A stretch of 64,000 nt of DNA. It comes from Artocarpus heterophyllus (lineage: Eukaryota > Streptophyta > Magnoliopsida > Rosales > Moraceae). The position numbers were made by a program, and so were the translations under genes. Shown here one piece after another: positions 1,919 through 48,085 of the stretch. How positions within the stretch are numbered: the first letter of the stretch is position 1; each line of letters opens with the position of its first letter. The DNA lies in the NCBI GenBank assembly GCA_025403435.1, contig CM046350.1, forward strand, positions 9,521,512-9,585,511. The letters run 5' to 3'. The notes beneath the pieces are model-generated. The model saw only the letters and a list, made by a program, of their open reading frames with translations. It had not been told where the DNA came from and made no database searches.

Positions 1919-2271
1919 AACTTGAATTGAAATGAAAATGTAAAATGCAGAAAAGTAAACGAACATTAGAGTTTATAGTGGTTCAGCTAAAAACGGCTTA
2001 CGTCCACTTGTTCTTCACTATAATTCTTTGAAAAGTACACGCTCAAGGTCTCTCCTCAAACACTTAGATATGTTTCTTAGATGAAAATTTTGAAAAATCA
2101 AAACTCACTTTCTAAATTCTAAGCCCCTCCTCTAGTCTCTCTTTCCTCTGCTTATAGAGAAGCTTTTGTCCAATGAATCACTCCCAAAACTGCTCTCCCC
2201 TTGTAACCGTTGTCTCCACATTCTTATCTCAACTAATATTGTCTCCTTTTTTTCACGTGGAGTTAACCGCT
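1919..2271 (+). repeat. direct repeat copy A, left part (split by LTR element)
   Basis: The sequence matches 12378-12725 over its whole length at roughly 80-85% by eye. Its continuation is found at 10525-10966, on the other side of the inserted LTR element. The last five bases (2267-2271, CCGCT) are the target-site duplication. Confidence 0.75.
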
Positions 2272-4213
2272 TGTAACGCCCCTATATGGGGGTTAACAGT
2301 TTTTAATGAGATAAAATAAAAATAAATAATAAAAGTAAAACCTTAAAAATAAAATTTGCCCGAGACTTAAATGAAAACTCTCAACTCAAAAATAAAAATA
2401 TAAACGACAAATAAACCACAGTTTTAATGTAGCACCTTTAATTTAATAATATAAACTGTTGTCATCATCATTTTAACCCTCAACACATTGTAATACAGTC
2501 ATAGAAAGTAACAATTGATGCTTACATTATCATGAAGAACATTCTCAACGATTGAAGCAGTCCCAATGTAATATAGTTACATTACTTCCTCAACTATATT
2601 TCTCGTAGCCACCTCACACTTAGTGAGTCCTGAAAAGATATAAACAAAAGGGAATGAGCAACACTATGCTCAGTAGAGAAAGCCATTACTCACCTCTATC
2701 ATTACCACATTAAAATCTGCATGGTTAGTAAGTTACATCATATTCCAGATTATGAGGTTTATTATGATCATATCTTATGGATACCGTAGTTAATCATTAC
2801 CAAGTGTCATAATTACACATTTATACAAATATTACCAATCATTACCAAGTATCACTCAACTCATCGAAACCCAAATGGGCGCACTTGATCACCCTATAAA
2901 CATTCCAAGGGTGTTCCGGTGAGGGGACATCAAGCCCCGAGTCCTCACCAAATCGATTCCTGTACAGTGTGTTCTGGGACTTTCAACCCAAGGAAGCGTC
3001 ATCGCCTTCCCCCTACTTTATCTTTTAGGGTATTCATGCCCAAGGACGTAACCGTCGCCCTTTTCATGTCTCACAATTTCTCTATATTAAATCATTATTA
3101 ATAGAGTTAATTTTCCTAACCATGCTTCTCAATTTATAACATGTGTCAATTCATTATGTTCCTCGCCGTACAATACAAGACGAGTCCATGTCATAGTTTC
3201 ATATGTGATACACATATAATATCAGTTCAACATAGATATATATATATTGCGGCAAAACAATCAATTTTAATTCTATAAAAACCTCACAAAAGATGAGTAA
3301 TAGAATCCCTACCTTTTAAGCTTATCAACAGTCTCTTAATCCTGGAATCAATTAACGTTAGCTCCATACTCCCTTGATCCTAAGGCGTGCATAAGGACAA
3401 TTAAAACTAAAGCACAACATACAACTACATTCATAAAATTTATTTTAATTTAATCTTAGAATTTCAAGAAATAACCACTGCCCATAGAGGTATTATAAAG
3501 TTTAACAATATAAATTTTCTGTCTAGGGCATATACACTTAGACTTCATACATATGCTCCAAAATAGCAACAAACATATACTTAGGTTTAAGAACGTAAAT
3601 TTGAATAATCCTTTAGTATAAAAGAAAATTTATAAATGAAAGACTAAATTTGTTCATAAGATTCTAACCTCGGATTATGGTTAGTTGGAAGCTTGAAATG
3701 GCTTCAAAACAGGTTCCTTTACTTCGATATGACTGAAATTCTTGCTCAAATGGAGGTGATGGTGGCTGATTTTTATGGCTGCCTTGAAGAAGTTCTCTAA
3801 GTATTTTGCTTCAGCAAAGAAATGAGAAGAAGAGTGTGGGAACCGTGGAAGAGAAAGGAAGAAAAGATGAAGTCTTTGAAAAGAAGTGATAGAAACAATT
3901 ATAGAGGAGACATGTTGAAGCATGTCACGGAGGAAATAAAGAAAATGAGGGTCAAGAGTAGTTGGAAAAGATATCCTTATGTCTCATCTAAAGACTTTAA
4001 CACATATAATGCCAATATGACATTTTTGAGATTTATTAGAAGTTCTAAGGCTTTTTAGTAATCATACTAAATAAATATAGGAGAATTTTAGAAAATTTAA
4101 AAATAGATAAAAATAAATATTATAAAATAAATTTAAATGAAGCAATTTTTTTTTATACATTAAAAATTAATTTAATTACCTCAATACCCGTTAGGAGAAT
4201 AACGGGTGTCACA
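2272..4213 (-). repeat. 3' LTR of the non-autonomous element
   Basis: 1,942 bp, virtually identical to 8578-10519. Its plus-strand left end (TGTAACGCCCCTATATGGGG) corresponds to the element's 3' terminus. The segment around 2880-3110 closely matches the gypsy LTR at about 40365-40600. The part at 3680-4213 (the element's U3 side) is not shared with the gypsy LTR apart from the extreme end. Short ORFs inside are not treated as genes. Confidence 0.93.
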
Positions 4214-4230
4214 GCTCTACCCCCCTTAAA
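4214..4230 (-). other. polypurine tract of the non-autonomous element
   Basis: On the minus strand this reads TTTAAGGGGGGTAGAGC, ending exactly at the 3' LTR. It is purine-rich with a single T after the G run. The adjacent internal sequence (a GAAATTTCGAGGACGAAATT box) also occurs just before the polypurine tract of the gypsy element. It is the expected plus-strand priming site. Confidence 0.8.
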
Positions 4231-5169
4231 GAAATTTCGTCCTCGAAATTTCAATTCTAGCAATACTAGTAAAAATTATGATTCCACTATGATTCCAATT
4301 CTGAGTCTAAACCGTTAATGTTATTTGTCCTCAAAATTTAAGTTATCGTATTTCCACTTATTTACTTGCATAATAAATCTTACTCCTAAATCCCTCAATA
4401 AGAGTATTTCTGACAAGTTTCAACTTATAACACCGTATAATAGTCTAAGAATCTGATCAGGCATACATATTGACCATATCATGATTCCAGTCCTTCATTG
4501 TCCATGGACTGTGATTTACAATCACATTTAAGGAGATTGCCAGAGAAATTTTATATACTTCATCTTTAGGTTCCTTTTCCTTTTTGAGTAAGGAAAAGTC
4601 AAATATATTTGATTTCATACCTCAACTAATAAACTAAAACATAATCATAAAACATATATCACAAACACTTATATTCAAAACCATACATTAAACTTACTCA
4701 TAGAGATATTAAACGGAATCTCAGAGTTGCAAACATACCCGACATATTTTTCATTAAACAGCTATCCTCATGACACAAACATTCAACCCAAATAATATAC
4801 TCATATTTCATATGGAATATCCCCATAATTGACTCTGGTACTTCCACATAATATTAACAGAATATTACACATTACAAACATAATACGGATACGTTTCGAG
4901 AGTACAAGGCACTCCGTATACCAGCTATCCATATCATGCATGCTTATAGGATACAAAAACATCGATAAACAAAAGATCGGACCTTAAGAAGGATGCGTTT
5001 CGAGAGCATCAAGTACTCCGTATCCAGCCATCCCGGCATTAGGCTCAATGAATCTAAAAGATTGAACAACGACGTACCACAAGAAACACAGAATACAAGG
5101 CAAACGGTTATTCGTAACACACGAAATACGGACACACATGCCTACATGCCAAAGATAAAACAAAAAAAA
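4231..5169. other. 3' untranslated interior of the non-autonomous element
   Basis: About 0.94 kb between the LOG-like stop codon and the polypurine tract. It has no coding potential on the element's strand. A short repeat occurs here: GCGTTTCGAGAG(C/T)A followed by CACTCCGTATCCAGC recurs near 4890-4930 and 4993-5030, about 100 bases apart. Confidence 0.5.
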
Positions 5170-5820
5170 TTACAGATGGAGATTCAAATCAATTGGCCGC
5201 TCCCGGCTTTCCCTTTCCCATTCAAGCTTGGATGTTGCAGTGTCGGATTCTGGATGTATGATTTGCATTTTATCTATCAATTCCTCAGCTGTTGAAGCAG
5301 TGACAAAGATTTGTCTCTCCGATTCTGTAGTGATGTTTTCTTCCACAGCGTAATCTAGAAATTTCAAAAGAGCGTCATAAAAACCCTTTACATTCAGCAG
5401 ACCCAAAGGTTTGGAATAAAAGCCCAACAATTGCCCACAAGCAACTATAAATATTTCCTCAAGAGTACCTAGACCACCAGGTAATGCTATAAAAGCATCA
5501 GAATTATAGATTATGTCTTTAAAATTTTTAGGGATACTCCTGACTCCTTCTCCCTTACCTATGGCTTCCTTACAAAGGTTTCCTTCAACTGGAATATGAG
5601 GCCAAATTTTTACATCAGTAGCGTCGCTAGACCTAGCTACTAGTGCCATATTTACCATCATTTTTATACTACCACCCCCATAGATTATGTTAATCTTCTT
5701 GCGTGCTAGGACTTGCCCTAAGTGATTTGCAGCTTCTAAATAAGCTTTATCTTTTCCAAGGCTGGAACCACAAAAGACACAGACATTCTTTATTTTCTTC
5801 GTGGACTGGGAGGTAGACAT
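5170..5820 (-). CDS. LOG-like phosphoribohydrolase homologue, transposon cargo
   Basis: A 216-residue intact ORF starting at the ATG at 5820. The frame extends to 5859 only through a GTG behind a stop. It belongs to the LOG family (cytokinin riboside 5'-monophosphate phosphoribohydrolase), which releases active cytokinin base in the cytosol. Visible: N-terminal VCVFCGSSLGKDKAY, the GGGS loop, SDAFIALPGG followed by LGTLEE (the PGGxGTxxE signature with catalytic Glu), GLLNVKGFYDALL and a C-terminal SKLEWE. Length matches the family. The Gly-rich loop after GGGS reads IKMMV instead of the usual xGLMG, and the position of the conserved active-site Arg upstream of SDAF appears to be Asn. Catalysis is therefore doubtful. 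Plant LOG genes normally have several introns and this copy has none, which suggests capture from an mRNA. Confidence 0.85.
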   Translation of the reverse strand: MSTSQSTKKIKNVCVFCGSSLGKDKAYLEAANHLGQVLARKKINIIYGGGSIKMMVNMALVARSSDATDVKIWPHIPVEGNLCKEAIGKGEGVRSIPKNFKDIIYNSDAFIALPGGLGTLEEIFIVACGQLLGFYSKPLGLLNVKGFYDALLKFLDYAVEENITTESERQIFVTASTAEELIDKMQIIHPESDTATSKLEWERESRERPIDLNLHL

Positions 5821-6463
5821 ATTTGGTTTATAGAAGTGGTTGCTTAATGTCTGCTCCACTTAGACTTCGGGTTCTACATAAGTTTTTAAAGATGAGAAAT
5901 ATACAAAAAGGGCTAAAGAGATAGACGAGTAGGTAATGAAAAGGTAATCCAAAGATTTAAACAAAATCTTGTGCGGATAAGAAAGTAAGATAAGGTGATT
6001 GATAGTTTACAGAAAATCTGATTCACTTTTTGAAAAAGATTAGACTCTAATTGTATAACTTTTGACAATTGAGAACAATTTGACAGAAGACCCTCATGAC
6101 ACAACTGTAGACTTTTTGACAAATATACACCAAGTCTAGAAATTTAATATAAACGACAAATACTGTAGAACTTTTGAAATTTGAGACACAAATCTTGAAA
6201 TATCTGGATAAGCTTTTCAAAATTCAAACATATTACTGTACCGTATGTAACGTGTCTGATAAGATAATATATTTTATTATATATATATTTAAGAAAATCA
6301 TAAATTAAATAAGATATTAACACTTACTGTATCAATCTAATAATCACAATTATTTCAAACACAAAAGCAAATATTCTGAGTAAAAGAAAAACACAAACTG
6401 TTGAACATCAGCTAAAACTGCTTCAAATAAGTAAAGACTAAATAACCTTTATAGAGCGATGAC

Positions 6464-6985
6464 TTATTCCCCATCCAATTTTCTTATGGCTTGACAAACA
6501 GGATCTAGAAATACCATATTCCTGAGGCGTTGTCTTTCTGTATAAAATTTAGGCCAGAGTTTAAAAATAGCTCCTTGAACATATCCACTAGGGTGACCGT
6601 GGAGAGGAGGATGGATGCTATCCAAGTTCTCCTTTGAAAGTCCATCCCTACAAAACCTTATTTTATCCTCTCTATTCGTAGACATATAACCAGGTGAAGT
6701 ACATTTACCGTTACAATTTTGTCTTCCACATTTGTTACAAGTGACCACGATGGCACGAGCTCTTCTTTTCATTGCACTACGACTGGTACCTGTTCTTGGT
6801 AAACCGACATCTTGACTAAAGTCACTCGGACGGATTTTCCCCTCTATCAACATTCTCACATCACAAGGGATACCAAAACGCATAAGAATCCACAACCGAG
6901 TAATTCTAGCCTTATATTTCTTTCTGAGAATCTTTTGGGAGAGTGATGGGAAATACTTTCTCATGTGTTGGTACTTTGGGTCCAT
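6464..6985 (-). CDS. unknown Cys-rich basic ORF, transposon cargo
   Basis: A 173-residue intact ORF with an ATG start, on the same strand as the element and 643 bp before the LOG-like ORF. I do not recognise the family. The first 90 residues are basic (KILRKKYKARITRLW, then SAMKRRARAIVV). They are followed by CNKCGRQNCNGKC, a CX2CX4CX3C cluster that could bind zinc. The cluster differs from the gag knuckle CX2CX4HX4C found in the gypsy element. The C-terminal half has no clear domain. It could be a second captured host fragment or a highly diverged nucleic-acid-binding protein. Its intact frame in a young element is the main reason to treat it as real. Confidence 0.5.
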   Translation of the reverse strand: MDPKYQHMRKYFPSLSQKILRKKYKARITRLWILMRFGIPCDVRMLIEGKIRPSDFSQDVGLPRTGTSRSAMKRRARAIVVTCNKCGRQNCNGKCTSPGYMSTNREDKIRFCRDGLSKENLDSIHPPLHGHPSGYVQGAIFKLWPKFYTERQRLRNMVFLDPVCQAIRKLDGE

Positions 6986-8558
6986 GATGAGATGAAAGAA
7001 GAGTAAATAGAAAGGAAAAATTAAGATAGTAAATTGCAGAATCCTAGAATTCCTTCTTCTTTTAGAGGAAAAGAAGAATTTTTAATGAAAAAGAAGAGGA
7101 TTTGCGATTTAGAGAAAAAATAACAAATTAAGAGAGAAAAAGTGAACTCGGAGAAATAAGGTCTTACGCACAGTAAACGTATATGTAAACAATAATTAAA
7201 CCACTGTATATGACACGTATAGAGACCACGTGGGAGAGACAGTGTGAATCAAACTGATTTAAGATTTGAACTAGGCCCAAATGTTCTAAGTTGAAAATGG
7301 TCAGGTTGTTTCGGGCCTTAACACATTTGGAACGAGTTAAATAACAAACATAAAATTGAAAACCAATTTGTATAAATCTTAAACCCAATTCAAAGTCCAC
7401 TATAGATAAAGTTAACTATAAACAACAAATCTAATTTAACGACAACAAGGATCTTCCTAAATGATCCAGCAACTCAAATAATTTTGTTTTAATCAAAACC
7501 TTATTGAACAATGCATACACCCATATGTTATTCCTAATACTTAACATCTATCAATGGATTCATCATCATTACTACCAAGGGTTTAGAATGCGACTAACCT
7601 TGAAATCAATACGATTTACGTCTTCCAACATAGACCATATCAATGAACAAAGACACTAGATGTTACTACTTAAGAAAATCTACAATCCCCACAATTCTAC
7701 TTATACAATATATAATTTCCTCATATAACAAAACCTTAGGTAACCAAAAGATTCACATCTAAACATCTAAAACTTAAACATTTTATCGTAATTATCCAAA
7801 ATTATTATAAGTGCCTTAAGTATTATGATTTACTTAAGGAAACTCCTATTGATCATTTTTCTATTGCATCTATATATAAAGATTCACTGATACACTTAAA
7901 TACAATGTACGTAACAAAATATTCCAATTTTGAGATTCATGCATTCTAGACTTTACACAGTCTCAACAGACCAAAAGTCTAACATTTATCTCTCTCAAGA
8001 TTCAATACCATGATTCCCAACTTATATCATATTCCTCAAATAAATAGAACTTTCAAGAAAAGTTATTGACACTTATGTGCTCCATCGAATCCACACATAA
8101 TCATTACTTAGGTTTGAATCAATTACGAAAAATTTGGCATATCTATGCCAAACTTTAAAATCAATAAATCAAGCCTTATATTTCTTTTTTATTGTTTTTC
8201 ACGAGACAAAAGGCTCTTAAATCCTCGTATCTACACGAATTTCTCATCGTTTATACGAATTAGATATGCTTATAGATCCAAATATTATACGAATCTCTCA
8301 TAAGCATTCTACTTATAAACTCATTTCATATAATTATCATTCCCTTATAACTATTAATACTTTCATTCTATATAATTATTGTACTCATATAACTATTAAT
8401 ATTTTCATTCTATGGCCTTTCCATGTTACATCCTTCTAGACTGTATAAATCAATGTGAAGGTTCATTTTGATGATGACAATGAAAATTCAGCTTCAAAAC
8501 CATCTCAAAAATATATTTTTTAAAGTGGTGCTACACTCCCTAGGTTAACCGAACCTAG
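6986..8558 (-). other. long leader of the non-autonomous element
   Basis: About 1.57 kb between the primer site and the first ORF. The first ~60 bases after the primer site match the gypsy leader (hairpin, then a TAGCACCAC motif). The rest is AT-rich and shows no ORF I would support. A stretch at 8260-8410 repeats a motif around TATAATTAT/CATTCTAT several times. Confidence 0.5.
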
Positions 8559-8559
8559 G
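8539..8559 (-). other. palindromic hairpin next to primer site
   Basis: CCTAGGTT (8539-8546) and AACCTAGG (8552-8559) can form an 8-bp stem with a 5-base loop. The same stem with one loop base changed lies at 41230-41250 in the gypsy element, also touching its primer site. It may be a packaging or dimerisation signal; that role is inference. Confidence 0.6.
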
Positions 8560-8570
8560 CTCTGATACCA
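8559..8570 (-). other. primer-binding site (initiator Met-tRNA)
   Basis: The minus strand reads TGGTATCAGAGC, complementary to the 3' end of plant initiator methionine tRNA. It sits seven bases inside the 5' LTR, the same spacing as in the gypsy element. Confidence 0.88.
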
Positions 8571-8577
8571 AAAATTC

Positions 8578-10519
8578 TGTAACGCCCCTATATGGGGGTT
8601 AACAGTTTTTAATGAGATAAAATAAAAATAAATAATAAAAGTAAAACCTTAAAAATAAAATTTGCCCGGGACTTAAATGAAAACTCTCAACTCAAAAATA
8701 AAAATATAAACGACAAATAAACCACAGTTTTAATGTAGCACCTTTAATTTAATAATATAAACTGTTGTCATCATCATTTTAACCCTCAACACATTGTAAT
8801 ACAGTCATAGAAAGTAACAATTGATGCTTACATTATCATGAAGAACATTCTCAACGATTGAAGCAGTCCCAATGTAATATAGTTACATTACTTCCTCAAC
8901 TATATTTCTCGTAGCCACCTCACACTTAGTGAGTCCTGAAAAGATATAAACAAAAGGGAATGAGCAACACTATGCTCAGTAGAGAAAGCCATTACTCACC
9001 TCTATCATTACCACATTAAAATCTGCATGGTTAGTAAGTTACATCATATTCCAGATTATGAGGTTTATTATGATCACATCTTATGGATACCGTAGTTAAT
9101 CATTACCAAGTGTCATAATTACACATTTATACAAATATTACCAATCATTACCAAGTATCACTCAACTCATCGAAACCCAAATGGGCGCACTTGATCACCC
9201 TATAAACATTCCAAGGGTGTTCCGGTGAGGGGACATCAAGCCCCGAGTCCTCACCAAATCGATTCCTGTACAGTGTGTTCTGGGACTTTCAACCCAAGGA
9301 AGCGTCATCGCCTTCCCCCTACTTTATCTTTTAGGGTATTCATGCCCAAGGACGTAACCGTCGCCCTTTTCATGTCTCACAATTTCTCTATATTAAATCA
9401 TTATTAATAGAGTTAATTTTCCTAACCATGCTTCTCAATTTATAACATGTGTCAATTCATTATGTTCCTCGCCGTACAATACAAGACGAGTCCATGTCAT
9501 AGTTTCATATGTGATACACATATAATATCAGTTCAACATAGATATATATATATTGCGGCAAAACAATCAATTTTAATTCTATAAAAACCTCACAAAAGAT
9601 GAGTAATAGAATCCCTACCTTTTAAGCTTATCAACAGTCTCTTAATCCTGGAATCAATTAACGTTAGCTCCATACTCCCTTGATCCTAAGGCGTGCATAA
9701 GGACAATTAAAACTAAAGCACAACATACAACTACATTCATAAAATTTATTTTAATTTAATCTTAGAATTTCAAGAAATAACCACTGCCCATAGAGGTATT
9801 ATAAAGTTTAACAATATAAATTTTCTGTCTAGGGCATATACACTTAGACTTCATACATATGCTCCAAAATAGCAACAAACATATACTTAGGTTTAAGAAC
9901 GTAAATTTGAATAATCCTTTAGTATAAAAGAAAATTTATAAATGAAAGACTAAATTTGTTCATAAGATTCTAACCTCGGATTATGGTTAGTTGGAAGCTT
10001 GAAATGGCTTCAAAACAGGTTCCTTTACTTCGATATGACTGAAATTCTTGCTCAAATGGAGGTGATGGTGGCTGATTTTTATGGCTGCCTTGAAGAAGTT
10101 CTCTAAGTATTTTGCTTCAGCAAAGAAATGAGAAGAAGAGTGTGGGAACCGTGGAAGAGAAAGGAAGAAAAGATGAAGTCTTTGAAAAGAAGTGATAGAA
10201 ACAATTATAGAGGAGACATGTTGAAGCATGTCACGGAGGAAATAAAGAAAATGAGGGTCAAGAGTAGTTGGAAAAGATATCCTTATGTCTCATCTAAAGA
10301 CTTTAACACATATAATGCCAATATGACATTTTTGAGATTTATTAGAAGTTCTAAGGCTTTTTAGTAATCATACTAAATAAATATAGGAGAATTTTAGAAA
10401 ATTTAAAAATAGATAAAAATAAATATTATAAAATAAATTTAAATGAAGCAATTTTTTTTTATACATTAAAAATTAATTTAATTACCTCAATACCCGTTAG
10501 GAGAATAACGGGTGTCACA
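8578..10519 (-). repeat. 5' LTR of the non-autonomous element
   Basis: 1,942 bp, matching 2272-4213 except for about two substitutions seen by eye. In the element's orientation it begins TGTGACACCCGTTATTC at 10519 and ends GGCGTTACA at 8578. The following five bases (10520-10524) repeat CCGCT from 2267-2271. Confidence 0.93.
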
Positions 10520-10524
10520 CCGCT

Positions 10525-10966
10525 CCCCTACTTTGTTTCCTCTTTATTGCTTTCTCAAAACTATAACACGTAATGAGTGACGGTTCCTTCGGCAGTTACT
10601 TTAGATTACTTGATGTGAGACGGTTACTTTTGGTGACTTCTCCTAGATAAAAACATATGTGATTTGTGAGGGGCGTGTAGTACCTTGGCCTTGCTACCAT
10701 GTCCTTGCTACTATGGTCTTGCTCGCATAGTAGCTTCTACCTTGACTTTACTCGCATAATAGACCTTGCTACCTTGGCCTTGCTACTATGGTCTTGCTGG
10801 TATAGCCTTGTTGCTATGGCCTTGTTACTATGGTCTTGTTCTCACACTATCTTTCACCTTTATAAACTTGGAGCTTCCTTAATTCAACGGTTGTATTCTT
10901 GTGTAAAGCATTAAATGCTTTGAGTTAAGGTTATTTCCTAACTCTTTAAACCTAATGGTATAACAA
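10525..10966 (+). repeat. direct repeat copy A, right part, with short tandem array
   Basis: Continuation of 1919-2271 after the inserted element; it matches 12718-13157. Positions 10680-10850 are an irregular minisatellite built on TTGCTACTATGGTCTTGCT and CTTGGCCTTGCTACC. The same array in a different arrangement is in copy B at 12880-13030. The copy ends at GGTATAACAATT. Confidence 0.7.
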
Positions 10967-12377
10967 TTATCCCTCAACTCTTAGTGCAAAATATTTGCAC
11001 TAAGACCTCAATCTTATTGCTTGAGGTTTGAAATACTTTTAAAGATACTAGGTGGTTGTGAACTACTCAAGTAGTGCTAAGTGGCATCCACCCAACTCTT
11101 TGGTACAAGTAAGGCCATCCCAAGGAGCGTGAGTAAGGCCTGCTTATAGGACATCACTAAAACTAAGACTAGGGGCGTAAGCAAAGCATTCTTGAGGGGC
11201 GCAACTGGGGCATGAAGCAAGGCGTATGAAAGGGGGCCTCGGGAATTCTTAGGGACACAACCAAAGCTTAGGCCAAAGTACTCTTGCGAGACAAGCGGGT
11301 GGCCCTGCGCGAGCATGGCTGAGACTGTCCCAAGGGTGGCCCTACACAAGCAGGACCGAGGCCTCCCGCAGGGACCCACGTGACCAAGGCCATGCCACAC
11401 ACTTTTTTTCCCTGGTGGGGGGCCCACAAGATTAGGTTACACACACCCTGCTCCCTCTTATAGAGGGAGTGGGGCCTCCCTTTTTCTCTTATACCTTCTC
11501 TCTTTCTCTTTTTTCTTTAAAATTTTAAAATCTCTAAAGCTTTTTTCATTTTTTCTCTATTTCCACACTCTAATTTCTTTCATAAAAATCCTTTAATTCT
11601 TTGCCTTTACTTTCAAAAATGGGATTAAAAGTTAAGTTTTGGTGATTAAAAGAGAGGAAAAGAAGTTCATAAATTTCAAGTTGTGGCCACCGACACAATC
11701 CGGGTTTAAGTTCATCTTTTTTGGATTCTTTCAAGGAGTTCTTCAAGCATTTTTGAAGGTTCATTCAATTTTGATCTTTGATTTTTCCCTTTTGCAAGTT
11801 TTCTTTGTTTGTTGGTGAACTAATTTTTAATTAAACATTGTTGGAATTTGATGCAGTCCAAGTGTTTGTTAATTGGCCTAAACCATCTTTAGGCTTAGGT
11901 TTTGTTTTGGAAGCTTATATTTCATGCCAAACATTTCATTATTTTTCCCAAATCAACATAGGGCTTAGGGCTTAGTTTTTTTAAATGCCCACGTACACAT
12001 TGTGTTTTTAGACTTACCAAGACCAATTTAGAGATTGTGTTTCTTTAAGGAGTAGTCGCACGTTAGGTGTTTGATATTTTGCGTTGACGAAATTGGGACT
12101 TAGTATTTTGCCGAATTGTCTTGTGTTATGTTTTGGATCCCATTGTTTGTGTGGTTAGTTTTTATTTTATTGAATATTTCAGCCAAAAACGGTCGAGGCA
12201 CCAAGTGCTTTGGCTTTAGGAATAAGAGTCCGATCTGTGTAAGGCGAGGGAAAATCAAGCGTCGTTAAGGATGCGGCCAAGGCTAAAGCCAAGGCCTCCT
12301 GCGAGTGGCCCTGTGCAAGCAAAAAATTGAAATGAATTGAAATGCTTGAATTAATGTGACTAGGAGAAAATGCTTGA
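10967..12377. other. spacer between direct repeats A and B
   Basis: About 1.4 kb flanked by the two direct repeats. Positions 11090-11420 are notably GC-rich for this window and contain degenerate repeats around GTGGCCCTGCGCGAGC and AAGGCCTCC. Related motifs return at 12240-12320. No gene is supported; the minus-strand frame across 11077-11427 is low-complexity repeat. The A-spacer-B layout could be an old LTR-type element (2.2 kb without the insertion), but I found no primer site or target duplication. Confidence 0.45.
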
Positions 12378-39242: not shown

Positions 39243-41211
39243 TGTAACACCCGTATTTTTAACGGGCATAATTTTGTAAAATTTAATGAATAAAATGTGA
39301 CTATTTAAAATTACTAAGTTGTTTATGATCATTTAAAAAAAAAATGCCACTTTAGTATTTTCTTACCAAGTCTTCCTAAGAAACATTCAAAACTTACCAA
39401 CACTTACTTCTACCAATCTTGTCTCCCTAAATTATTGCTCAATTATATAGACTTCTTCTCATTTTGCTAAAGGTATCCGAAGGGGACATTGAATTATTTT
39501 CCGTCAATTCATAGAAGACATGGAGATATTTTCTCAACCACCGAATTAATTATTTCCTTATCTTCTTCTATAATTCACTCCAATTATCCCCTCAATTATG
39601 TTGGCATTATTTGCTAAAAGTCTTCATAGGAGACAAGATGATATTTTCCTTTAAGACTCTTTTGTTCCTTCTTACAATTTTCCCCCGTAAACATCACATT
39701 CCTCTTAAGCATTTTGATATCTTTTTATTTAACTATCACCACCTTCTTCTCTAGTTCTCATTCTCTTCCTTCTCACTTCAAATTTCTAACTAAAGACATA
39801 GAGCACAAAGCTCTCTTTGTGGCCAAGACAATTATAATTCCCAACCATGATCGAGGCGGTTTTAGAGTTAATTCAAGCTTGATTGATAACCCAAACTTTG
39901 GTGCTTTTCAAAGAAGTTTTGAGGTAGGTTTTCTTTAATCTAAACTTAGTTTTTAGTATGTATTTTCTCCATGTTTAATGCATAAAAATACTTTAATGGC
40001 ACTAGTAGACGGGTTTACACATAACTCACTTATGAATGTGATTATACGTTGTGCTTTAGTTTTAATTGTCCTTATGCATGCCTTAGGGTCAAGGATGTGT
40101 GGAGCTAACGTTAATTGATTCCAGGATTAAAAGATTGTTGATAAGCTTGAAAGGTAGGGATTCTATTACTCATTTTTTGTGAGGTTTTTATAGAATTAAA
40201 ATTGATTGTTTTGCCGCAATATATATATATCTATGTTGAACTGATATTATATGAGTATCACATATGAAACTATGACATGGACTCGTCTTGTATTGTACGG
40301 CGAGGAACATAATGAATTGACACATGTTATAAATTGAGAAGCATGGTTAGGAAAACTGACTCTATTAATAATGATTTAATATAGAGAAATGGTGAGACAT
40401 GAAGAGGGCGGCGGTTACGTCCTTGGGCATGAATACCCAAAAAGGTAAAATAGGGGGAAGGTGATGACGCTTCCTTGGGTTGAAAGTCCCAGAACACACT
40501 GTACATGAATTGATTTGGTGAGGACTCGGGGCTTGATGTCCCCTCACCGGAACACCCTTGGAATGTTTATAGGGTGATCAAGTGCGCCCATTTGGGTTTC
40601 GATGAGTTGAGTGATACTCAATTTAACATGGATACCTAGGAACAATGATGATTGGTAATATTTGTATAAATGTGTAATTATGACACTTGGTAATGATTAA
40701 CTACGGTATCCATAAGATGTGATCATAATAAACCTCATAATCTGGAATATGATGTAACCTACTAACCATGCAGTTTTTAATGTGGTAATGGATAAACCAT
40801 AAGGTGAGTCATGATTTCCCTACTGGGCATGTCGATGCTCATCCCTATCATATCTTCATATCTCAGGTGGAACTCAGTGCAACATATCTGAAGAGGAATA
40901 AGCGAAAACAATCCTGTTGTTTTCGTGTTAGAAGACCCTGTTTAATTACAACTTATCTACAACATGTAAGAGTTGTATTATTTTTTTTATAGCTGTGTTA
41001 AGTTATTTGGGAATTGTACTATGGTGATGATGACTGTAATTATATATATTTGGTGCTACACTAAAAACTGTGGTTTGTATTTAAAACGTTTATTTTTATT
41101 TTTCTTGTTGTTTAAAGACCCATGGGCATTGTTTAATTGATTTAAATAATTTAAAATTTAAAATTATTTTTATTTATTTAAAACTGTTAACCCCCACATA
41201 GGGGTGTTACA
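39243..41211 (+). repeat. 5' LTR of the gypsy element
   Basis: 1,969 bp, from TGTAACACCCG to GGGGTGTTACA. The region 40140-40760 is close to the LTR of the non-autonomous element. This includes a 60-codon antisense open stretch (40365-40547) that differs from its counterpart at about seven residues. Confidence 0.95.
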
Positions 41212-41218
41212 GAATTTT

Positions 41219-41230
41219 TGGTATCAGAGC
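41219..41230 (+). other. primer-binding site (initiator Met-tRNA)
   Basis: TGGTATCAGAGC, complementary to the 3' end of initiator methionine tRNA, seven bases after the 5' LTR. It is followed directly by an 8-bp stem palindrome (CCTAGGTT at 41230-41237, AACCTAGG at 41243-41250). Confidence 0.92.
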
Positions 41231-41362
41231 CTAGGTTCGATTAACCTAGGGGGTATAGCACCACCTTAAAAATTAATCTGTGGAAATGGTTTTAAAGTTA
41301 GGTGTTAATGTCATCATCATTTGGTACTGATCCTAGTTAAATTTTCGCAGCCAGTAGAAACT

Positions 41363-41665
41363 ATGCCACCAAGACGTCAAATGCAATCGTCTGAGCTGTC
41401 ACAACCGGTTGAACATGCTCAAGAAGTTGAGCAACCGGAACCGATGGAACAAGCTCAAGAAGATGAGCAACTACGACATGCAACACAATCCCCGCCAGTT
41501 GCACCAGAAGTAAATAATTTAGGACAAATTCTTCAAGCATTACAAATTGTGCAAAAACCTGTGGAGGTTCGTGATCCTGAACAACGACATCTAACTCTGT
41601 TGAAGGAGTTTATGAAGCAGAAACCACCCACATTTAGTGGAGAACCTAACCCGGTCATAGCATAA
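41363..41665 (+). pseudogene. gag, N-terminal part ended by a stop codon
   Basis: Starts at the ATG of MPPRRQMQ, a usual start for plant gypsy gag. It runs 100 codons through repeats of QPVEHAQEVEQPEP type to PTFSGEPNP, where gag homology begins, and stops at TAA (41663-41665). The following frame (from 41666) is the same and continues with gag, so this is a nonsense change rather than a natural boundary. In-frame TTG codons upstream (41321) are not credible starts. Confidence 0.85.
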
Positions 41666-44600
41666 CAATGGCTAAAGGCAGTCAAAAAGAAGTTGGACAC
41701 CTTGAGGATTCCACGGGAGTATTGGGTTAGCTTTTCAACCTATATATTTGAGAGTAAAGCCGAAGAATGGTGGGATCTTCAGAAAGACGACTACGACGTG
41801 CCGAATCTTACATGGGAGCAGTTCGAAACCATTTTTCGCAACACCTATATTCCTCAGAGCCATAGGCAAGCAATGATGCGAGAATTTGAAAACCTAGTGC
41901 AGGGAGATACAACAGTTGCCGAATACCATGCTCGATTTATAGAATTGTCTCGCTACAATCCCGAGGCTGTATCGGATCCAATGGCGAGATGCGAAAAATT
42001 TAGAAATAACCTGAGGCCAAAAATCAGACAAATGATAGCTGCTGTTCCATCAACAGAATTTCTTGATCTTGTAGCTGCGGCACAGCGGGCAGAGACAGAA
42101 CTAAATAACTCCTATGGAGAGTATAAGGGTTCTGGTGGGCGTCAAAGGAAAATAAGTAAGAAAGAGAAGTCACAAGGGCAAGTCATTCAGCATAGTAGAG
42201 TGACTATTGGTGGTGGATCTTCTGGCAGTGGTCGTTTCCAACCGTATGCTTGTCATAACTGTGGACAAGTGGGACATCTGAGGAGAAATTGCCCTAACCG
42301 CCCTACACAATCATCCTTTGCACCATGGCCACAAGGAAGTCATTTTGGCTCCACTGTTTGGGGAGGGAGTCAAAATCGTGGAGCGCCTCAGCAAAACACT
42401 CCAGCTTCCCAAGTCTCAGTAACTCAACCTCGAGGGTTCCAGCCTCAGTACAACTATCAACAGCGGCCACAGGGTTCCAATTTTTATGCTAATCAGAACT
42501 TCCAACCGACTCCACAAGGCTCAGTGAATCAAAGGCCATATTTTTCTGGGAGAAATAATAATAAGGCTAGTAGTAGCCAAGGAAACCGAGGAAAAAGTGA
42601 TAAAGGAAAAGCACCAGCACAAGCTTATACAATTACGGCTACAGCTGGACAAGCAAAACAGGCTGATCACTCAGTTGTAGATGGTATGATTCACGTGTCT
42701 CATTCTTGGGCTCATGTATTATTTGACACTGGTGCCACTCATTCATTTATATCTATGTTATTTGCTTCCGTACTACAATTAGAAACTGAGACATGTAGTT
42801 CATCATTAACCCTTAGTACACCAATGGGCGGGATAGCTGAAGTATCCATAATTTGTAAATCAGTGTGTATTGTTATAGGAGAACATAAACTATCGGCTGA
42901 CCTATATGTAATAACTATGACAGAGTTTGATGTAATCTTAGGAATGGATTGGCTAACTAAATACCAGGCAATAGTAGATTGTCATAGGAAACGTGTCTCT
43001 TTATTCACCAAGAATGGACAAGTCATCGAATTTCAGGCAAAAACAGGAACAGTGACGCCAGCCCCGGTGCTAAAGGCTTGTATTGGAGGACGAAGGAATT
43101 TCACCAATCTTGGGACGATCTTTGCTTCAAATGGAGAACTAAAGAAGAGTGACCTATCCTCTCACACTCCTGTGGTGGACGAATTTTCAGATGTTTTTCC
43201 AGATGAATTGCCCGGACTTCCGCCTAATAGAGAAATTGAGTTTGTCATCGACCTAACTCAAGGAGCAGCGCCTGTTTCTATTGCTCCGTATCGAATGGCA
43301 CCTGCTGAGAAAGTGGAATTGAGGAAGCAGTTGGACGAATTACTGGAAAAAGGATTTATTCGACCAAGTACATCACCTTGGGGAGCTCCAGTACTTTTTG
43401 TGAAGAAACATGACAGATCGTTGAGGCTCTGTGTCGATTATCGCCAGCTTAATCGATTGACTATCAAGAACAAGTACCCTCTACCCCGAATTGATGAGTT
43501 GTTTGATCAGTTAGGAGAATCTTGCTATTTCTCAAAGATTGACTTACGATCCGGATATCACCAACTGAAGATAAGAGAAGAGGACATTCCAAAGACAGCT
43601 TTTCGGACTCGCTACGGTCATTTTGAGTTTCTTGTCATGCCTTTCGGGTTGACTAATGCACCAGCGGCTTTCATGGACTTGATGAACCGTGTCTTTCGAC
43701 AGTACTTAGATCAATTTATCATTGTCTTCATAGATGATATCTTGATCTATTCTAAAAACGAAGAAGAACATGCTGAGCATTTGAGGATCGCTCTACAAAC
43801 GTTGAGAGAACATGCTCTTTATGCAAAAAGAGAAAAATGTGATTTCTGGATGACGAAGGTCAAGTTCCTTGGACACGTTGTCTCTGAAGAAGGCATCTCA
43901 GTGGACCCCTCCAAAATTGAAGCAGTGCTAAATTGGGAACGACCAAAGAACGTGTCGGAGATTCGAAGTTTCCTCGGACTAGCTGGATACTATCGACGCT
44001 TCGTAGAGAATTTTTCAAAGATTGCTTCTCCATTAACAAAACTCACAAGGAAGAATGTCAAGTTCGTGTGGGATGATAAATGTGAAGAAGCATTTGAGGA
44101 ACTGAAGCGAAGACTCACCAGTGCACCTGTGCTAATCATACCTAACAATGAGGAGCCTTACACAGTATACACTGATGCCTCAGGAAACGGTTTGGGTTGT
44201 GTGTTAATGCAGCATGGACGAGTAGTTGCCTACGCCTCACGCCAGTTGAAACCCCATGAGAGGAACTACCCCACACATGATCTTGAGTTAGCTGCTGTGG
44301 TTTTCGCACTCAAAATTTGGAGATGTTATCTATATGGCGCAAAGTTCGAGCTATATTCAGATCATCAAAGTCTGAAATATTTGTTTACTCAAAAGGATCT
44401 CAATCTAAGGCAACGAAGATGGACTGAGTACATGGTGGACTATGACTTTAGTATCCAATATCATCCTGGAAAAGCAAATGCCGTGGCAGATGCTCTAAGT
44501 CGTAAGAACAACGGACGTATAGCCAGTTTAGCATTGGAAGATTGGAGACGAGTCACCATCGCCGACTTCAACTTGCAATATTATGAAGATGACGAGAGAG

Positions 44601-46060
44601 CTTTCCTATTCAATGTGATAGCAACTCCTATGTTAATTCAGAAAGTAAAACAAGGACAATGGCACGATGAAGGATTACGTAGGGTTTGGGAGCAAATACA
44701 AAATGGAGAACAACTGGATGGATGGCAGATTGAGCCAGAAGGATTTTTACTTTACAAAGGAAGATTAGTTATTCCAGAGGATCCATATCTCAGGCATGCG
44801 GTGCTAGATGAGGCTTACCGTTCAAAGTTTGCTATTCATCCTGGAAGCACAAAAATGTATATGGATCTAAAACGACAATACTGGTGGCGAGGAATGAAAC
44901 GAGATGTAGCAACCTTTGTCTCTAAGTGCATGACGTGCCAACAGGTTAAAGTGGAACATCAAAAGCCTGGAGGCGAGTTGAGGAGCTTACCTATTCCAGA
45001 ATGGAAGTGGGATCATGTGACAATGGACTTTGTAACCGGATTTCCTAAGACTCAAATAGGGCATGACGCCGTTTGGGTAATTGTAGATCGTTTAACTAAG
45101 ACAGCCCACTTCATCCCAATCAGAACTAGTTATAGTGTCTCAAAATTATGTCAATTATACGTGGAAAAGGTAGTGACATTGCATGGAGTGCCAATGTCAA
45201 TAGTTTCCGATAGAGATACACGTTTCACGTCGAAATTTTGGAGAGGATTGCAGAGGGCCTTGGGAACTCAATTGAATTTTAGTACAGCTTTTCATCCTCA
45301 AACAGATGGACAATCTGAACGTGTCATTCAGATTCTCGAGGATATGCTTCGGGCTTGTGTGCTGGACTTTGGAACAAATTGGGCTGCACAGCTGCCATAT
45401 GTTGAATTCGCATATAACAACAGTTACCAAGCAAGTATTAGAATGGCTCCATATGAGGCCTTATATGGTAGACCTTGTAGATCTCCATTGTGTTGGGCTG
45501 AAAAGGAAGAACGTCTTGAACTTGGGCCTCAGTTTATCAGAGAAACAACGGACAAGATCCAGATTATTCGCGAACGTCTTCAGACAGCTCAAAGTCGACA
45601 AAAGAGTTATGTAGATAAGAGGAGGCGACCTTTAGAGTTCATGATCGGAGACTTTGTGTTCTTAAAAGTGAAACCAAAACGAGGTATATCTCGATTTGGT
45701 GTTAAAGAAAAGTTAGCACCAAGGTATACAAGACTGTTTGAGATTGTGGAACGCATTGGAACGTTGGCATACCGTTTAGACCTACCACCACAATTGTCTC
45801 ATGTACATAATGTGTTTCATGTATCGATGTTGAGAAAGTATGAACCCGACCCTTCACATGTGATCATGTGGACAGATGTGCCAATTCAAGGAGATACGAA
45901 TTATGAAGAAATTCCAGTTCAAATACTGGATCATGAAATAAAATTATTACGTCGTCGTGGAATTCCTCTGGTGAAAGTGATGTGGCAACACCATGATGTG
46001 GAGGAAGCCACATGGGAACTTGAATATGAAATGAGAGAAAAGTACCCACATTTGTTTTAA
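41666..46060 (+). CDS. gypsy gag-pol polyprotein (remaining frame)
   Basis: About 1,464 codons open to TAA at 46060, in frame with the gag start but separated by one stop. Order: gag capsid region (41690-42120); zinc knuckle [14 protein letters not shown] (42251-42292); aspartic protease DTGATHSF (near 42725); reverse transcriptase (about 43290-43800) with [11 protein letters not shown] and the FIDD active site (43728-43739); RNase H with [10 protein letters not shown] (near 44165); integrase with an HHCC zinc region (44835-44945), then [18 protein letters not shown] and HPQTDGQSE carrying the D, D and E. The C-terminus ([19 protein letters not shown]) is the chromodomain-like tail of chromoviruses. 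All catalytic motifs appear intact, so pol may still act if gag is bypassed or supplied. The first in-frame ATG after the stop is well inside gag. Confidence 0.93.
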
Positions 46061-46102
46061 CATTGTAATCAGTGTACGAAATTTCGAGGACAAAATTTTT
46101 AT

Positions 46103-46115
46103 AGGAGGGGAGAGC
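46103..46115 (+). other. polypurine tract of the gypsy element
   Basis: AGGAGGGGAGAGC directly precedes the 3' LTR. Upstream, an AAATTTCGAGGACAAAATTT box matches the non-autonomous element at the equivalent place. Confidence 0.85.
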
Positions 46116-48085
46116 TGTAACACCCGTATTTTTAACGGGCATAATTTTATAAAATTTAATGAATAAAATGTGACTATTTAAAATTACTAAGTTGTTTATG
46201 ATCATTTAAAAAAAAAAATGCCACTTTAGTATTTTCTTACCAAGTCTTCCTAAGAAACATTCAAAACTTACCAACACTTACTTCTACCAATCTTGTCTCC
46301 CTAAATTATTGCTCAATTATATAGACTTCTTCTCATTTTGCTAAAGGTATCCGAAGGGGACATTGAATTATTTTCCGTCAATTCATAGAAGACATGGAGA
46401 TATTTTCTCAACCACCGAATTAATTATTTCCTTATCTTCTTCTATAATTCACTCCAATTATCCCCTCAATTATGTTGGCATTATTTGCTAAAAGTCTTCA
46501 TGGGAGACAAGATGATATTTTCCTTTAAGACTCTTTTGTTCCTTCTTACAATTTTCCCCCGTAAACATCCCATTCCTCTTAAGCATTTTGATATCTTTTT
46601 ATTTAACTATCACCACCTTCTTCTCTAGTTCTCATTCTCTTCCTTCTCACTTCAAATTTCTAACTAAAGACATAGAGCACAAAGCTCTCTTTGTGGCCAA
46701 GACAATTATAATTCCCAACCATGATCGAGGCGGTTTTAGAGTTAATTCAAGCTTGATTGATAACCCAAACTTTGGTGCTTTTCAAAGAAGTTTTGAGGTA
46801 GGTTTTCTTTAATCTAAACTTAGTTTTTAGTATGTAGTTTCTCCATGTTTAATGCATAAAAATACTTTAATGGCACTAGTAGACGGGTTTACACATAACT
46901 CACTTATGAATGTGATTATACGTTGTGCTTTAGTTTTAATTGTCCTTATGCATGCCTTAGGGTCAAGGATGTGTGGAGCTAACGTTAATTGATTCCAGGA
47001 TTAAAAGATTGTTGATAAGCTTGAAAGGTAGGGATTCTATTACTCATTTTTTGTGAGGTTTTTATAGAATTAAAATTGATTGTTTTGCCGCAATATATAT
47101 ATATCTATGTTGAACTGATATTATATGAGTATCACATATGAAACTATGACATGGACTCGTCTTGTATTGTACGGCGAGGAACATAATGAATTGACACATG
47201 TTATAAATTGAGAAGCATGGTTAGGAAAACTGACTCTATTAATAATGATTTAATATAGAGAAATGGTGAGACATGAAGAGGGCGGCGGTTACGTCCTTGG
47301 GCATGAATACCCAAAAAGGTAAAATAGGGGGAAGGTGATGACGCTTCCTTGGGTTGAAAGTCCCAGAACACACTGTACATGAATTGATTTGGTGAGGACT
47401 CGGGGCTTGATGTCCCCTCACCGGAACACCCTTGGAATGTTTATAGGGTGATCAAGTGCGCCCATTTGGGTTTCGATGAGTTGAGTGATACTTAATTTAA
47501 CATGGATACCTAGGAACAATGATGATTGGTAATATTTGTATAAATGTGTAATTATGACACTTGGTAATGATTAACTACGGTATCCATAAGATGTGATCAT
47601 AATAAACCTCATAATCTGGAATATGATGTAACCTACTAACCATGCAGTTTTTAATGTGGTAATGGATAAACCATAAGGTGAGTCATGATTTCCCTACTGG
47701 GCATGTCGATGCTCATCCCTATCATATCTTCATATCTCAGGTGGAACTCAGTGCAACATATCTGAAGAGGAATAAGCGAAAACAATCCTGTTGTTTTCGT
47801 GTTAGAAGACCCTGTTTAATTACAACTTATCTACAACATGTAAGAGTTGTATTATTTTTTTTATGGCTGTGTTAAGTTATTTGGGAATTGTACTATGGTG
47901 ATGATGACTGTAATTATATATATTTGGTGCTACACTAAAAACTGTGGTTTGTATTTAAAACGTTTATTTTTATTTTTCTTGTTGTTTAAAGACCCATGGG
48001 CATTGTTTAATTGATTTAAATAATTTAAAATTTAAAATTATTTTTATTTATTTAAAACTGTTAACCCCCACATAGGGGTGTTACA
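46116..48085 (+). repeat. 3' LTR of the gypsy element
   Basis: 1,970 bp, nearly identical to the 5' LTR. Differences seen include an extra A in the A run near 46208, CATGGGAGAC for CATAGGAGAC near 46500, CATCCC for CATCAC near 46568, and TATGTAG for TATGTAT near 46835. Confidence 0.95.

What the first reader, a model, noticed from the sequence alone, without database searches (positions are those of the whole stretch)
2272..10519. Young LTR retroelement that carries an intact LOG-like gene instead of gag-pol
The sequence shows perfect element structure (1,942-bp LTRs, CCGCT duplication, primer site, polypurine tract). The interior has no retroviral-type protein and instead holds two intact same-strand ORFs, one clearly from the cytokinin-activating LOG family. 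The LTRs differ at about two sites, so it moved very recently while keeping both ORFs open. LTR elements that carry a whole hormone-metabolism homologue are rare, and this could spread cytokinin-related coding sequence through the genome.
Basis: partly seen in the sequence, partly recalled or inferred. Interest (0 to 1): 0.93.

Follow-up and report, generated by a model that had tools for sequence, protein, structure and literature searches.

The report
Gutted retroelement with virus-type zinc-finger gene
A plant genome holds about 3,000 copies of a jumping element, most of those sampled very young, that lacks the usual replication genes and so likely borrows them from a relative, yet keeps two protein genes open: one related to plant RNA-virus zinc-finger proteins and predicted to bind nucleic acid and counter silencing, the other a cytokinin-enzyme relative predicted to be inactive.

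Summary
The element is real: two 1,942-bp LTRs with 2 differences, CCGCT duplication, PBS and PPT. It reads on the minus strand without gag-pol. Its 985-Mb genome holds about 3,000 copies: 3,017 LOG 30-mer places, 2,979 PPT-LTR junctions. Of 20 copies read whole, 18 have perfect duplications and 12 have LTR pairs without a substitution. ORF1 is open in 44 of 50 copies, LOG in 48 of 50; 2 further junctions lack LOG. ORF1 is clearly constrained, LOG weakly. The LOG cargo lacks catalytic Arg99 in all 51 sequences checked, so spreading cytokinin activation is unlikely. LOG domains in Ty3/gypsy elements are already published (PMC9289625). New here: a gag-pol-less, young, high-copy family keeping a virus-type zinc-finger gene beside a likely LOG pseudoenzyme. 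A related gag-pol element lies about 29 kb away. Best reading: a helper-dependent retroelement with a likely anti-silencing or RNA-binding gene; its helper was not found.

The parts
8578..10519 (-). 5' LTR of the element (element reads on the minus strand), 1,942 bp
   Evidence: 2 differences from the other LTR
8558..8570 (-). primer binding site TGGTATCAGAGCC (initiator tRNA-Met type, recalled)
   Evidence: sequence; same motif beside the neighbouring gag-pol element's 5' LTR at 41219-41231
6986..8577 (-). 1.6-kb leader without gag-pol; 38 ATGs before ORF1
6464..6985 (-). ORF1, 173 aa, zinc-finger protein related to viral cysteine-rich nucleic-acid-binding proteins
6701..6769 (-). ORF1 residues 73-95: basic KRRAR stretch followed by C83, C86, C91, C95
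   Evidence: K73, R74, R75 and the four cysteines unchanged in 41 sequences (one cell unreadable at C86); one of 8 diverged open copies (L070) has lost C83; the 100-nt block over it is the least diverse of the interior
5170..5820 (-). LOG-family ORF, 216 aa, intronless
5521..5535 (-). LOG residues 96-100 (IPKNF): Arg99 and its neighbours replaced
5455..5481 (-). LOG motif PGGLGTLEE kept
4214..4227 (-). polypurine tract AAGGGGGGTAGAGC next to the 3' LTR
   Evidence: 2,979 PPT-LTR junctions in the genome
2272..4213 (-). 3' LTR of the element
2267..2271 (.). target-site duplication CCGCT, left copy
10520..10524 (.). target-site duplication CCGCT, right copy
39243..48085 (+). related Ty3/gypsy element with gag-pol: LTRs 39243-41211 and 46116-48085, TSD AATAT, gag-pol frame 41666-46060; shows the type of helper. 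This copy has a stop codon within its gag region

Best explanation
This is a gag-pol-less LTR retroelement, one of about 3,000 copies in its plant genome, that likely moves with the enzymes of a related Ty3/gypsy element and keeps two genes open: a zinc-finger protein related to plant RNA-virus cysteine-rich proteins, predicted to bind nucleic acid and protect the element from silencing, and a LOG-family protein predicted to have lost cytokinin-activating catalysis. Shown: anatomy, copy number, young LTR pairs in the sample, absence of gag-pol, family relationship of ORF1 through its plant relatives, constraint on ORF1 (strong) and on the LOG frame (weak), replaced catalytic residues, and a gag-pol element in the same window with the same primer site, a similar purine tract and 817 bp of LTR at 91% identity. 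Inferred: mobilisation in trans by such a helper, because primer site and LTR ends match. Inferred from the viral relatives: ORF1 acts as a silencing suppressor and/or RNA- or DNA-binding factor, and mainly benefits the copy that encodes it, which would explain constraint in an element without its own polymerase. Inferred: the LOG protein has been recruited to a non-enzymatic role.
For: Copy number: 3,017 LOG 30-mer places at up to 2 mismatches, reversed control 0; 2,979 PPT-LTR junctions, control 0. Of 95 listed junctions on C1 and C2 that fall in the range of both lists, 93 carry LOG: 83 have a listed LOG place beside them and 10 of the other 12 were read and carry a full-length LOG frame; 2 are internally deleted. 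No room for gag-pol in the 20 whole copies: interior parts add up to about 4.1-4.4 kb. Youth: LTR pairs free of substitutions in 12 of 20. Integrity: ORF1 open in 36 of 40, LOG in 39 of 40; in 10 diverged copies ORF1 8, LOG 9. Selection: ORF1 shared polymorphisms 7 nonsynonymous to 17 synonymous, ratio 0.12, p 6e-7; LOG 9 to 8, ratio 0.36, p 0.035; indel events ORF1 2, spacer 13, LOG 1 in 40 copies. ORF1 family: 855 proteins by profile; of 57 members scanned, 48 match Carla_C4 (best 1.9e-7) and 47 Viral_NABP (best 1.1e-8). Viral relatives are reported as RNA-silencing suppressors, and one as a transcription factor causing hyperplasia (PMC12172455, passages). LOG: Arg99 is Asn and Lys100 is Phe in all 51 sequences; Arg99 and Glu122 are the proposed catalytic residues of CgLOG, and alanine substitutions of the AMP-binding and catalytic residues are reported to abolish activity almost completely, Ser19 excepted (PMC4979012, passages). 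Helper type.
Against: The window ORF1 itself scores below both Pfam cut-offs (16.7 v 23 bits; 12.4 v 20.9); the link runs through relatives at 43-59% identity. Its predicted fold is of low confidence (pLDDT 70, pTM 0.35) and has no significant match; the top BFVD hit, a silencing suppressor of Helleborus mosaic virus, has E 1.9. One diverged copy with an open ORF1 has lost a motif cysteine. LOG constraint is weak: pooled pN/pS 0.56 among 11 sequences, some pairs at or above 1. The gag-pol copy in the window is interrupted and only part of its LTR matches, so the true helper was not found, and its copy number could not be asked. No expression data.
Confidence: 0.53

Rival explanations
1. ORF1 is a structural or packaging protein, not a silencing suppressor: it coats the element's RNA and leads it into the particles of a helper, as a substitute nucleocapsid; the LOG protein, whose fold is predicted intact, may assist assembly.
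For: ORF1 has a basic stretch and four-cysteine motif under the least diverse block of the interior, and cis preference for the RNA that encodes it would explain constraint in a polymerase-less element. The LOG model matches solved LOG structures.
Against: Viral relatives are reported as suppressors and regulators; in L049 an ORF1 relative follows an integrase frame, i.e. it accompanies an element that has its own pol.
Confidence: 0.22
2. Passive cargo: the ORFs are open only because the burst is recent; they do nothing for the element.
For: Low divergence overall; LOG singletons are near neutral (28 to 12, expected 0.757 nonsynonymous, p 0.25); LOG pN/pS at or above 1 in some pairs.
Against: ORF1 shared polymorphisms 7 to 17 (p 6e-7), few indels in either ORF, ORF1 pooled ratio 0.23 in diverged copies, and long-term conservation of both proteins across plants.
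Confidence: 0.1
3. Deletion derivative of an autonomous family: masters with gag-pol, ORF1 and LOG exist in this genome and selection on the ORFs happens in the masters.
For: LOG domains occur in RT-bearing Ty3/gypsy consensus sequences of Citrus and Populus (PMC9289625); an ORF1 relative follows pol in L049; the own genome has at least 150 further, better-scoring LOG frames whose surroundings were not read. The 12 junctions read over 2 kb would not have shown a pol lying upstream of ORF1, and shared polymorphisms could have been inherited from several masters.
Against: None of the 20 whole copies has room for gag-pol, and junctions and LOG places are nearly equal in number, so masters with these ends would have to be few.
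Confidence: 0.27
4. The LOG protein still activates cytokinin and pushes host cells towards division, helping the element spread in meristems.
For: LOG fold and PGGLGTLEE motif kept in the window, Glu122 kept in all 51 sequences; relatives in other plants keep Arg99.
Against: Asn99, Phe100, Pro97, Ile96, Gly129 and Lys53 in place of Arg, Lys, His, Met, Trp and Gly in all 51 sequences; very long branch, 1.19 changes per column.
Confidence: 0.05

Closest known systems
Ty3/gypsy elements with LOG (YgdH) domains in Citrus and Populus (PMC9289625 section 12, citing Steinbauerova 2011, which is not held)
   Same: LOG-family domain inside plant LTR elements; the best-placed named relatives of the cargo are Xanthoceras and Populus proteins
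   Different: Those were found in consensus sequences built on a reverse transcriptase marker; this family has no gag-pol, carries ORF1, and its LOG has lost Arg99
Plant LTR elements with additional ORFs between pol and 3' LTR (PMC7264820, part 1 of 3 read)
   Same: Sense ORFs just upstream of the 3' LTR, kept in most copies
   Different: No gag-pol at all; ORF1 resembles a virus protein
Orchid Ty3/gypsy elements with an AlkB-type RNA demethylase (PMC9289625, passages and section 12)
   Same: An accessory function also known from flexiviruses sits in a plant retroelement
   Different: Another protein, and those elements keep gag-pol
Cysteine-rich proteins of carlaviruses, allexiviruses and mandariviruses (PMC12172455, passages)
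   Same: Basic stretch followed by a cysteine zinc-finger motif; Pfam Carla_C4/Viral_NABP match in relatives
   Different: ORF1 is 173 aa (most relatives 178-185) with conserved N- and C-terminal parts outside the Pfam match; it sits in retroelements
LARD/TRIM-type non-autonomous LTR elements (recalled)
   Same: Two LTRs, PBS, PPT, no gag-pol, high copy number
   Different: Those are defined by lacking coding capacity; this one keeps two ORFs, one clearly constrained
VANDAL elements with VANC anti-silencing protein (recalled)
   Same: Plant mobile element with its own predicted counter-silencing gene
   Different: DNA transposon; unrelated protein; no test of function here

Membership tests
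LTR retrotransposon | Two near-identical LTRs, 5-bp target duplication, PBS, PPT | tested here: met
   18 of 20 other copies with perfect 5-bp duplication
LTR retrotransposon, autonomous | gag-pol in the interior | tested here: not met
   no other frame of 150 aa or more in the element
Ty3/gypsy, Tekay/Del-type chromovirus lineage | Lineage-specific reverse transcriptase, integrase and chromodomain | tested here: inconclusive
   The element has no pol. Its LTR (817 bp at 91%), PBS and PPT resemble a Ty3/gypsy element at 39243-48085; no chromodomain was reported by Pfam there, and the Tekay label is recalled
LARD (large non-autonomous LTR element) | No coding capacity (definition recalled) | tested here: not met
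   ORF1 open in 44 of 50, LOG in 48 of 50; constraint
LOG (cytokinin riboside monophosphate phosphoribohydrolase) | Fold and PGGxGTxxE motif | tested here: met
   two diverged copies have Lys at position 121
LOG (cytokinin riboside monophosphate phosphoribohydrolase) | Catalytic Arg99 and Glu122 | tested here: not met
   Glu122 kept, Arg99 is Asn in 51 of 51
LOG (cytokinin riboside monophosphate phosphoribohydrolase) | Enzyme activity | not testable with these tools
   needs protein
Viral_NABP / Carla_C4 (Pfam) | Score above the curated cut-off | tested here: not met
   window ORF1 16.7 v 23 and 12.4 v 20.9; some relatives pass, e.g. P0007 28.5 v 23 and 24.5 v 20.9, L049 ORF 34.2 v 23
Viral_NABP / Carla_C4 (Pfam) | Basic stretch followed by four-cysteine motif | tested here: met
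   KRRAR and C83, C86, C91, C95
RNA-silencing suppressor | Suppression activity | not testable with these tools
   inferred from viral relatives

The most novel reading that the evidence does not exclude
A gene for a plant-RNA-virus-type cysteine-rich silencing suppressor has become a shared accessory module of plant LTR retroelements. In this genome it has let a polymerase-less 'satellite' retroelement burst to about 3,000 copies by defending its own RNA while using a helper's enzymes, with a LOG pseudoenzyme recruited as its partner.
Probability: 0.35. Interest if true: 0.9.

Novelty: new variant of a known kind. Interest (0 to 1): 0.76.

Why it matters
Non-autonomous LTR elements are usually seen as empty passengers. 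A family that has discarded gag-pol but keeps a virus-type gene under constraint suggests that counter-defence or RNA binding, rather than enzymes, can be what an element must carry for itself. It links plant RNA viruses and retroelements through a shared protein family, gives a clean natural test of whether a retroelement protein suppresses RNA silencing in cis, and warns that some plant 'LOG' gene models (for example Populus LOGL10-like ones, inferred) may be element-borne.

Tried and rejected
Rejected: 'cytokinin-activating cargo' (active-site losses). Rejected: 'single odd copy or assembly artefact' (about 3,000 copies; duplications in 18 of 20 read). Rejected: decayed gag-pol inside the element. 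Led nowhere: viral-contig scans with A1, P0156 and P0020 (54, 13 and 16 pattern matches, none confirmed); PDB sequence search with ORF1 (best E 0.046, unrelated); fold searches with ORF1; literature searches for LOG, extra ORFs or carlavirus-type proteins with retrotransposons: only PMC9289625 holds both YgdH and retrotransposon, and none holds Carla_C4 with retrotransposon. G-box pair upstream of ORF1: present in 21 of 21 sequences, but I do not take it to exceed what low divergence would leave (judged by eye). LTR dating set L013 aside because one LTR has an internal duplication and the other end was not found in the piece (its raw count was 107 differences). Not reached: surroundings of the 150 LOG frames, copy number of the gag-pol element in the window, host species.

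Bias to tell: the 40 copies all hold the exact LOG 30-mer, which slightly favours open LOG frames. Twenty (C1) were picked at intervals by me from 56 listed, twenty (C2) are the first twenty listed; all from the first 100 of 3,017 places. The 12 junctions are those of 95 compared that had no listed LOG place beside them; only 2 kb upstream of the 3' LTR was read, which would not show a pol upstream of ORF1; ORF1 was not looked for in the 2 without LOG. The expected nonsynonymous fraction comes from the spacer's substitution spectrum (84 alleles); p-values treat sites as independent. The best 150 of 5,816 ORF1 candidates are all without stops, but they are the best-scoring ones. In the tree the canonical group was named beforehand by its Arg-Lys motif.
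Full report
The LTRs at 2272-4213 and 8578-10519 are 1,942 bp long and differ at two sites, flanked by CCGCT. The primer site and the purine tract are on the minus strand, so the element reads right to left and both ORFs are in sense. No gag-pol was found in its interior: the gag-pol frame of the neighbouring element finds one match, at E 0.56.

It is one member of a large and young family. A 30-base word inside the LOG ORF occurs, with up to two mismatches, 1,453 + 1,564 = 3,017 times in the 985-Mb genome, with no match to the reversed control. The PPT-LTR junction occurs 1,438 + 1,541 = 2,979 times, control 0. I read 20 copies over up to 9.85 kb each. All 20 show LTR-interior-LTR, one (L013) with an LTR that runs to the edge of the piece. 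Eighteen have perfect 5-bp duplications; L018 runs on into a further copy (inferred from the sequence after its last LTR), and L013 has an LTR with an internal duplication. Twelve of 20 LTR pairs have no substitution; seven have 1 to 13; L013 was set aside. The 19 pairs sum to 33 differences in 40,257 sites, about 8e-4, or some tens of thousands of years at 1.3e-8 per site and year (rate recalled; collapse of repeats in assembly could make this too young). If the 20 are typical, the family fills about 25 Mb, 2.5% of the genome (inference).

The cargo belongs to the family, not to one copy. On C1 and C2, 95 listed junctions fall in the range of both lists; 83 have a listed LOG place beside them and 12 do not. 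I fetched 2 kb upstream of each of the 12. Ten carry a full-length LOG frame at 88-98% protein identity, two are internally deleted; so 93 of 95 carry LOG. No pol was seen in those 12 pieces, but they would not reach a pol upstream of ORF1. In the 20 whole copies the interior parts add up to about 4.1-4.4 kb, which leaves no room for gag-pol. ORF1 is open in 36 of 40 and LOG in 39 of 40 word-sampled copies, and in 8 of 10 and 9 of 10 of the diverged copies.

Selection is clear for ORF1 and weak for LOG. With the neutral expectation taken from the spacer's own substitution spectrum, ORF1 has 7 nonsynonymous to 17 synonymous shared polymorphisms (ratio 0.12, p 6e-7) and 29 to 29 in all, two of the 29 being stops (ratio 0.29, p 4e-6). 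LOG has 9 to 8 shared (0.36, p 0.035) and 37 to 20 in all (0.60, p 0.045), with no stop. Indel events in 40 copies: ORF1 2, spacer 13, LOG 1; the spacer is richer in A+T, so part of this contrast may be composition. A plain count on the first 21 sequences gave lower ratios, 0.11 and 0.29. In the diverged copies the pooled ratio is 0.23 for ORF1 (9 sequences) and 0.56 for LOG (11 sequences), some LOG pairs at or above 1. Singletons, mostly younger, are near neutral for LOG (p 0.25) and borderline for ORF1 (p 0.06).

ORF1 is the overlooked gene. One-sequence search found 15 relatives; a profile of 16 sequences found 855 proteins at E up to 0.01. Among the 120 listed, most are unnamed; named sources are Hibiscus cannabinus, Xanthoceras sorbifolium, Populus x canadensis, P. 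alba, Acer yangbiense, Rhamnella rubrinervis, Orobanche minor and O. hederae. Of 57 aligned members, 48 match Carla_C4 and 47 Viral_NABP at E up to 0.01. The window protein itself stays below both cut-offs. The alignment shows a basic stretch, a cysteine motif and a conserved C-terminal part; the 100-nt block over the zinc finger is the least diverse of the interior, though one diverged copy has lost one of the cysteines. Viral cysteine-rich proteins with a nuclear-localisation motif and a zinc finger are reported as RNA-silencing suppressors, and that of chrysanthemum virus B also as a transcription factor causing hyperplasia (PMC12172455, passages). That ORF1 does the same is inference; the predicted fold is poor and gave no significant match.

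The ORF1 family also lives in other retroelements. Contig L049, from a MAG labelled Nomurabacteria but evidently plant DNA, has an integrase frame, then about 200 bases downstream on the same strand an ORF1 relative at 49% identity, then a purine tract. Its pol is only 23% identical to the gag-pol of the window, so it is a different Ty3/gypsy lineage (Athila-like by a recalled motif). ORF1 therefore behaves like an accessory module placed after pol in at least one other lineage. A LOG protein (P0058) and an ORF1 relative (P0150) both list a longest contig of 8,723 bases, which hints that the two are linked elsewhere too.

The LOG cargo is a likely pseudoenzyme. Its model matches solved LOG structures (best 2a33, E 1.8e-14) and it keeps PGGLGTLEE, but Arg99, one of the two proposed catalytic residues of CgLOG, is Asn in all 51 sequences checked (window, 40 copies, 10 diverged copies), and Met96, His97, Lys100 and Trp129 are replaced by Ile, Pro, Phe and Gly in all 51. 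Alanine substitutions of the AMP-binding and catalytic residues are reported to abolish CgLOG activity almost completely, Ser19 excepted; the passages I saw do not list every mutant (PMC4979012). Against a wholly dead site, Glu122 is kept in all, and Glu121 in all but two diverged copies. In a tree of 48 proteins, 39 element-like LOGs separate from 9 canonical plant LOGs with SH-aLRT 100, and the window lineage (window and P0016) sits on a branch of 1.19 changes per column. The 9 canonical rows have Lys100 and Glu125; none of the 39 does, though 36 of the 39 keep Arg99.

How it likely moves. At 39243-48085 the window holds a Ty3/gypsy element with gag, protease, RT, RNase H and integrase domains, duplication AATAT, the same primer site with near-identical flank, a similar purine tract, and 817 bp of LTR at 91% identity to the LOG element. 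It marks the kind of helper; this copy has a stop in its gag region, and no copy was identified as the actual helper. The same genome also has at least 150 other LOG-domain frames, each matched in one stretch without introns, at 102.6-122.9 bits against the LOG profile (window cargo 77 bits); 26 of the 150 have an internal stop by my count of the listing. Whether these sit in gag-pol elements could not be read.

Prior art. [quoted passage not shown] In the searches named in Tried and rejected I found no report of the ORF1 family in retroelements, nor of a gag-pol-less family carrying these two genes; most subscription papers are not in that library.

Verdict: new variant of a known kind. The gene that makes it interesting is the one it did not name, and the hormone story is the part least supported.

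Noticed in passing
window 39243-48085: Ty3/gypsy element with gag-pol, near-identical LTRs (1,969 and 1,970 bp), TSD AATAT; one in-frame stop separates an N-terminal gag stretch from the 1,464-aa frame. LTR partly shared with the LOG element.
   Followed up: partly
G000, 150 places listed: At least 150 further LOG-domain frames without introns (4,846 first-look candidates, 150 scored) scoring higher than the window cargo; probably other LOG-carrying element families in the same genome.
   Followed up: no
window 7211-7233: G-box/ABRE-like pair CCACGTGGT and TACGTGTCA about 240 nt upstream of ORF1; cores present in 21 of 21 sequences; 38 ATGs lie between PBS and ORF1, so a separate promoter or splicing would likely be needed to express it.
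   Followed up: partly
L049: Plant retroelement contig (integrase frame plus ORF1 relative) binned into a Candidatus Nomurabacteria genome, i.e. apparent contamination in a reference MAG.
   Followed up: yes
L009-L028: Two LTR length classes among copies (about 1.97 kb and 2.35-2.42 kb), both with the same cargo.
   Followed up: no
window 1921-2102 and 12373-12555; 10675-10847 and 12915-12970: Diverged direct repeats on both sides of the element (90% and 83% identity) and a 14-base tandem-like repeat (CCTTGCTACYATGG) to its right.
   Followed up: no
window 31090-34723: Frames with an NB-ARC domain and armadillo repeats, in line, probably one gene.
   Followed up: no
P0019, P0021: Populus proteins, one named LOGL10, fall with the element-type LOGs, so some annotated LOG genes may be element-borne (inference).
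   Followed up: partly
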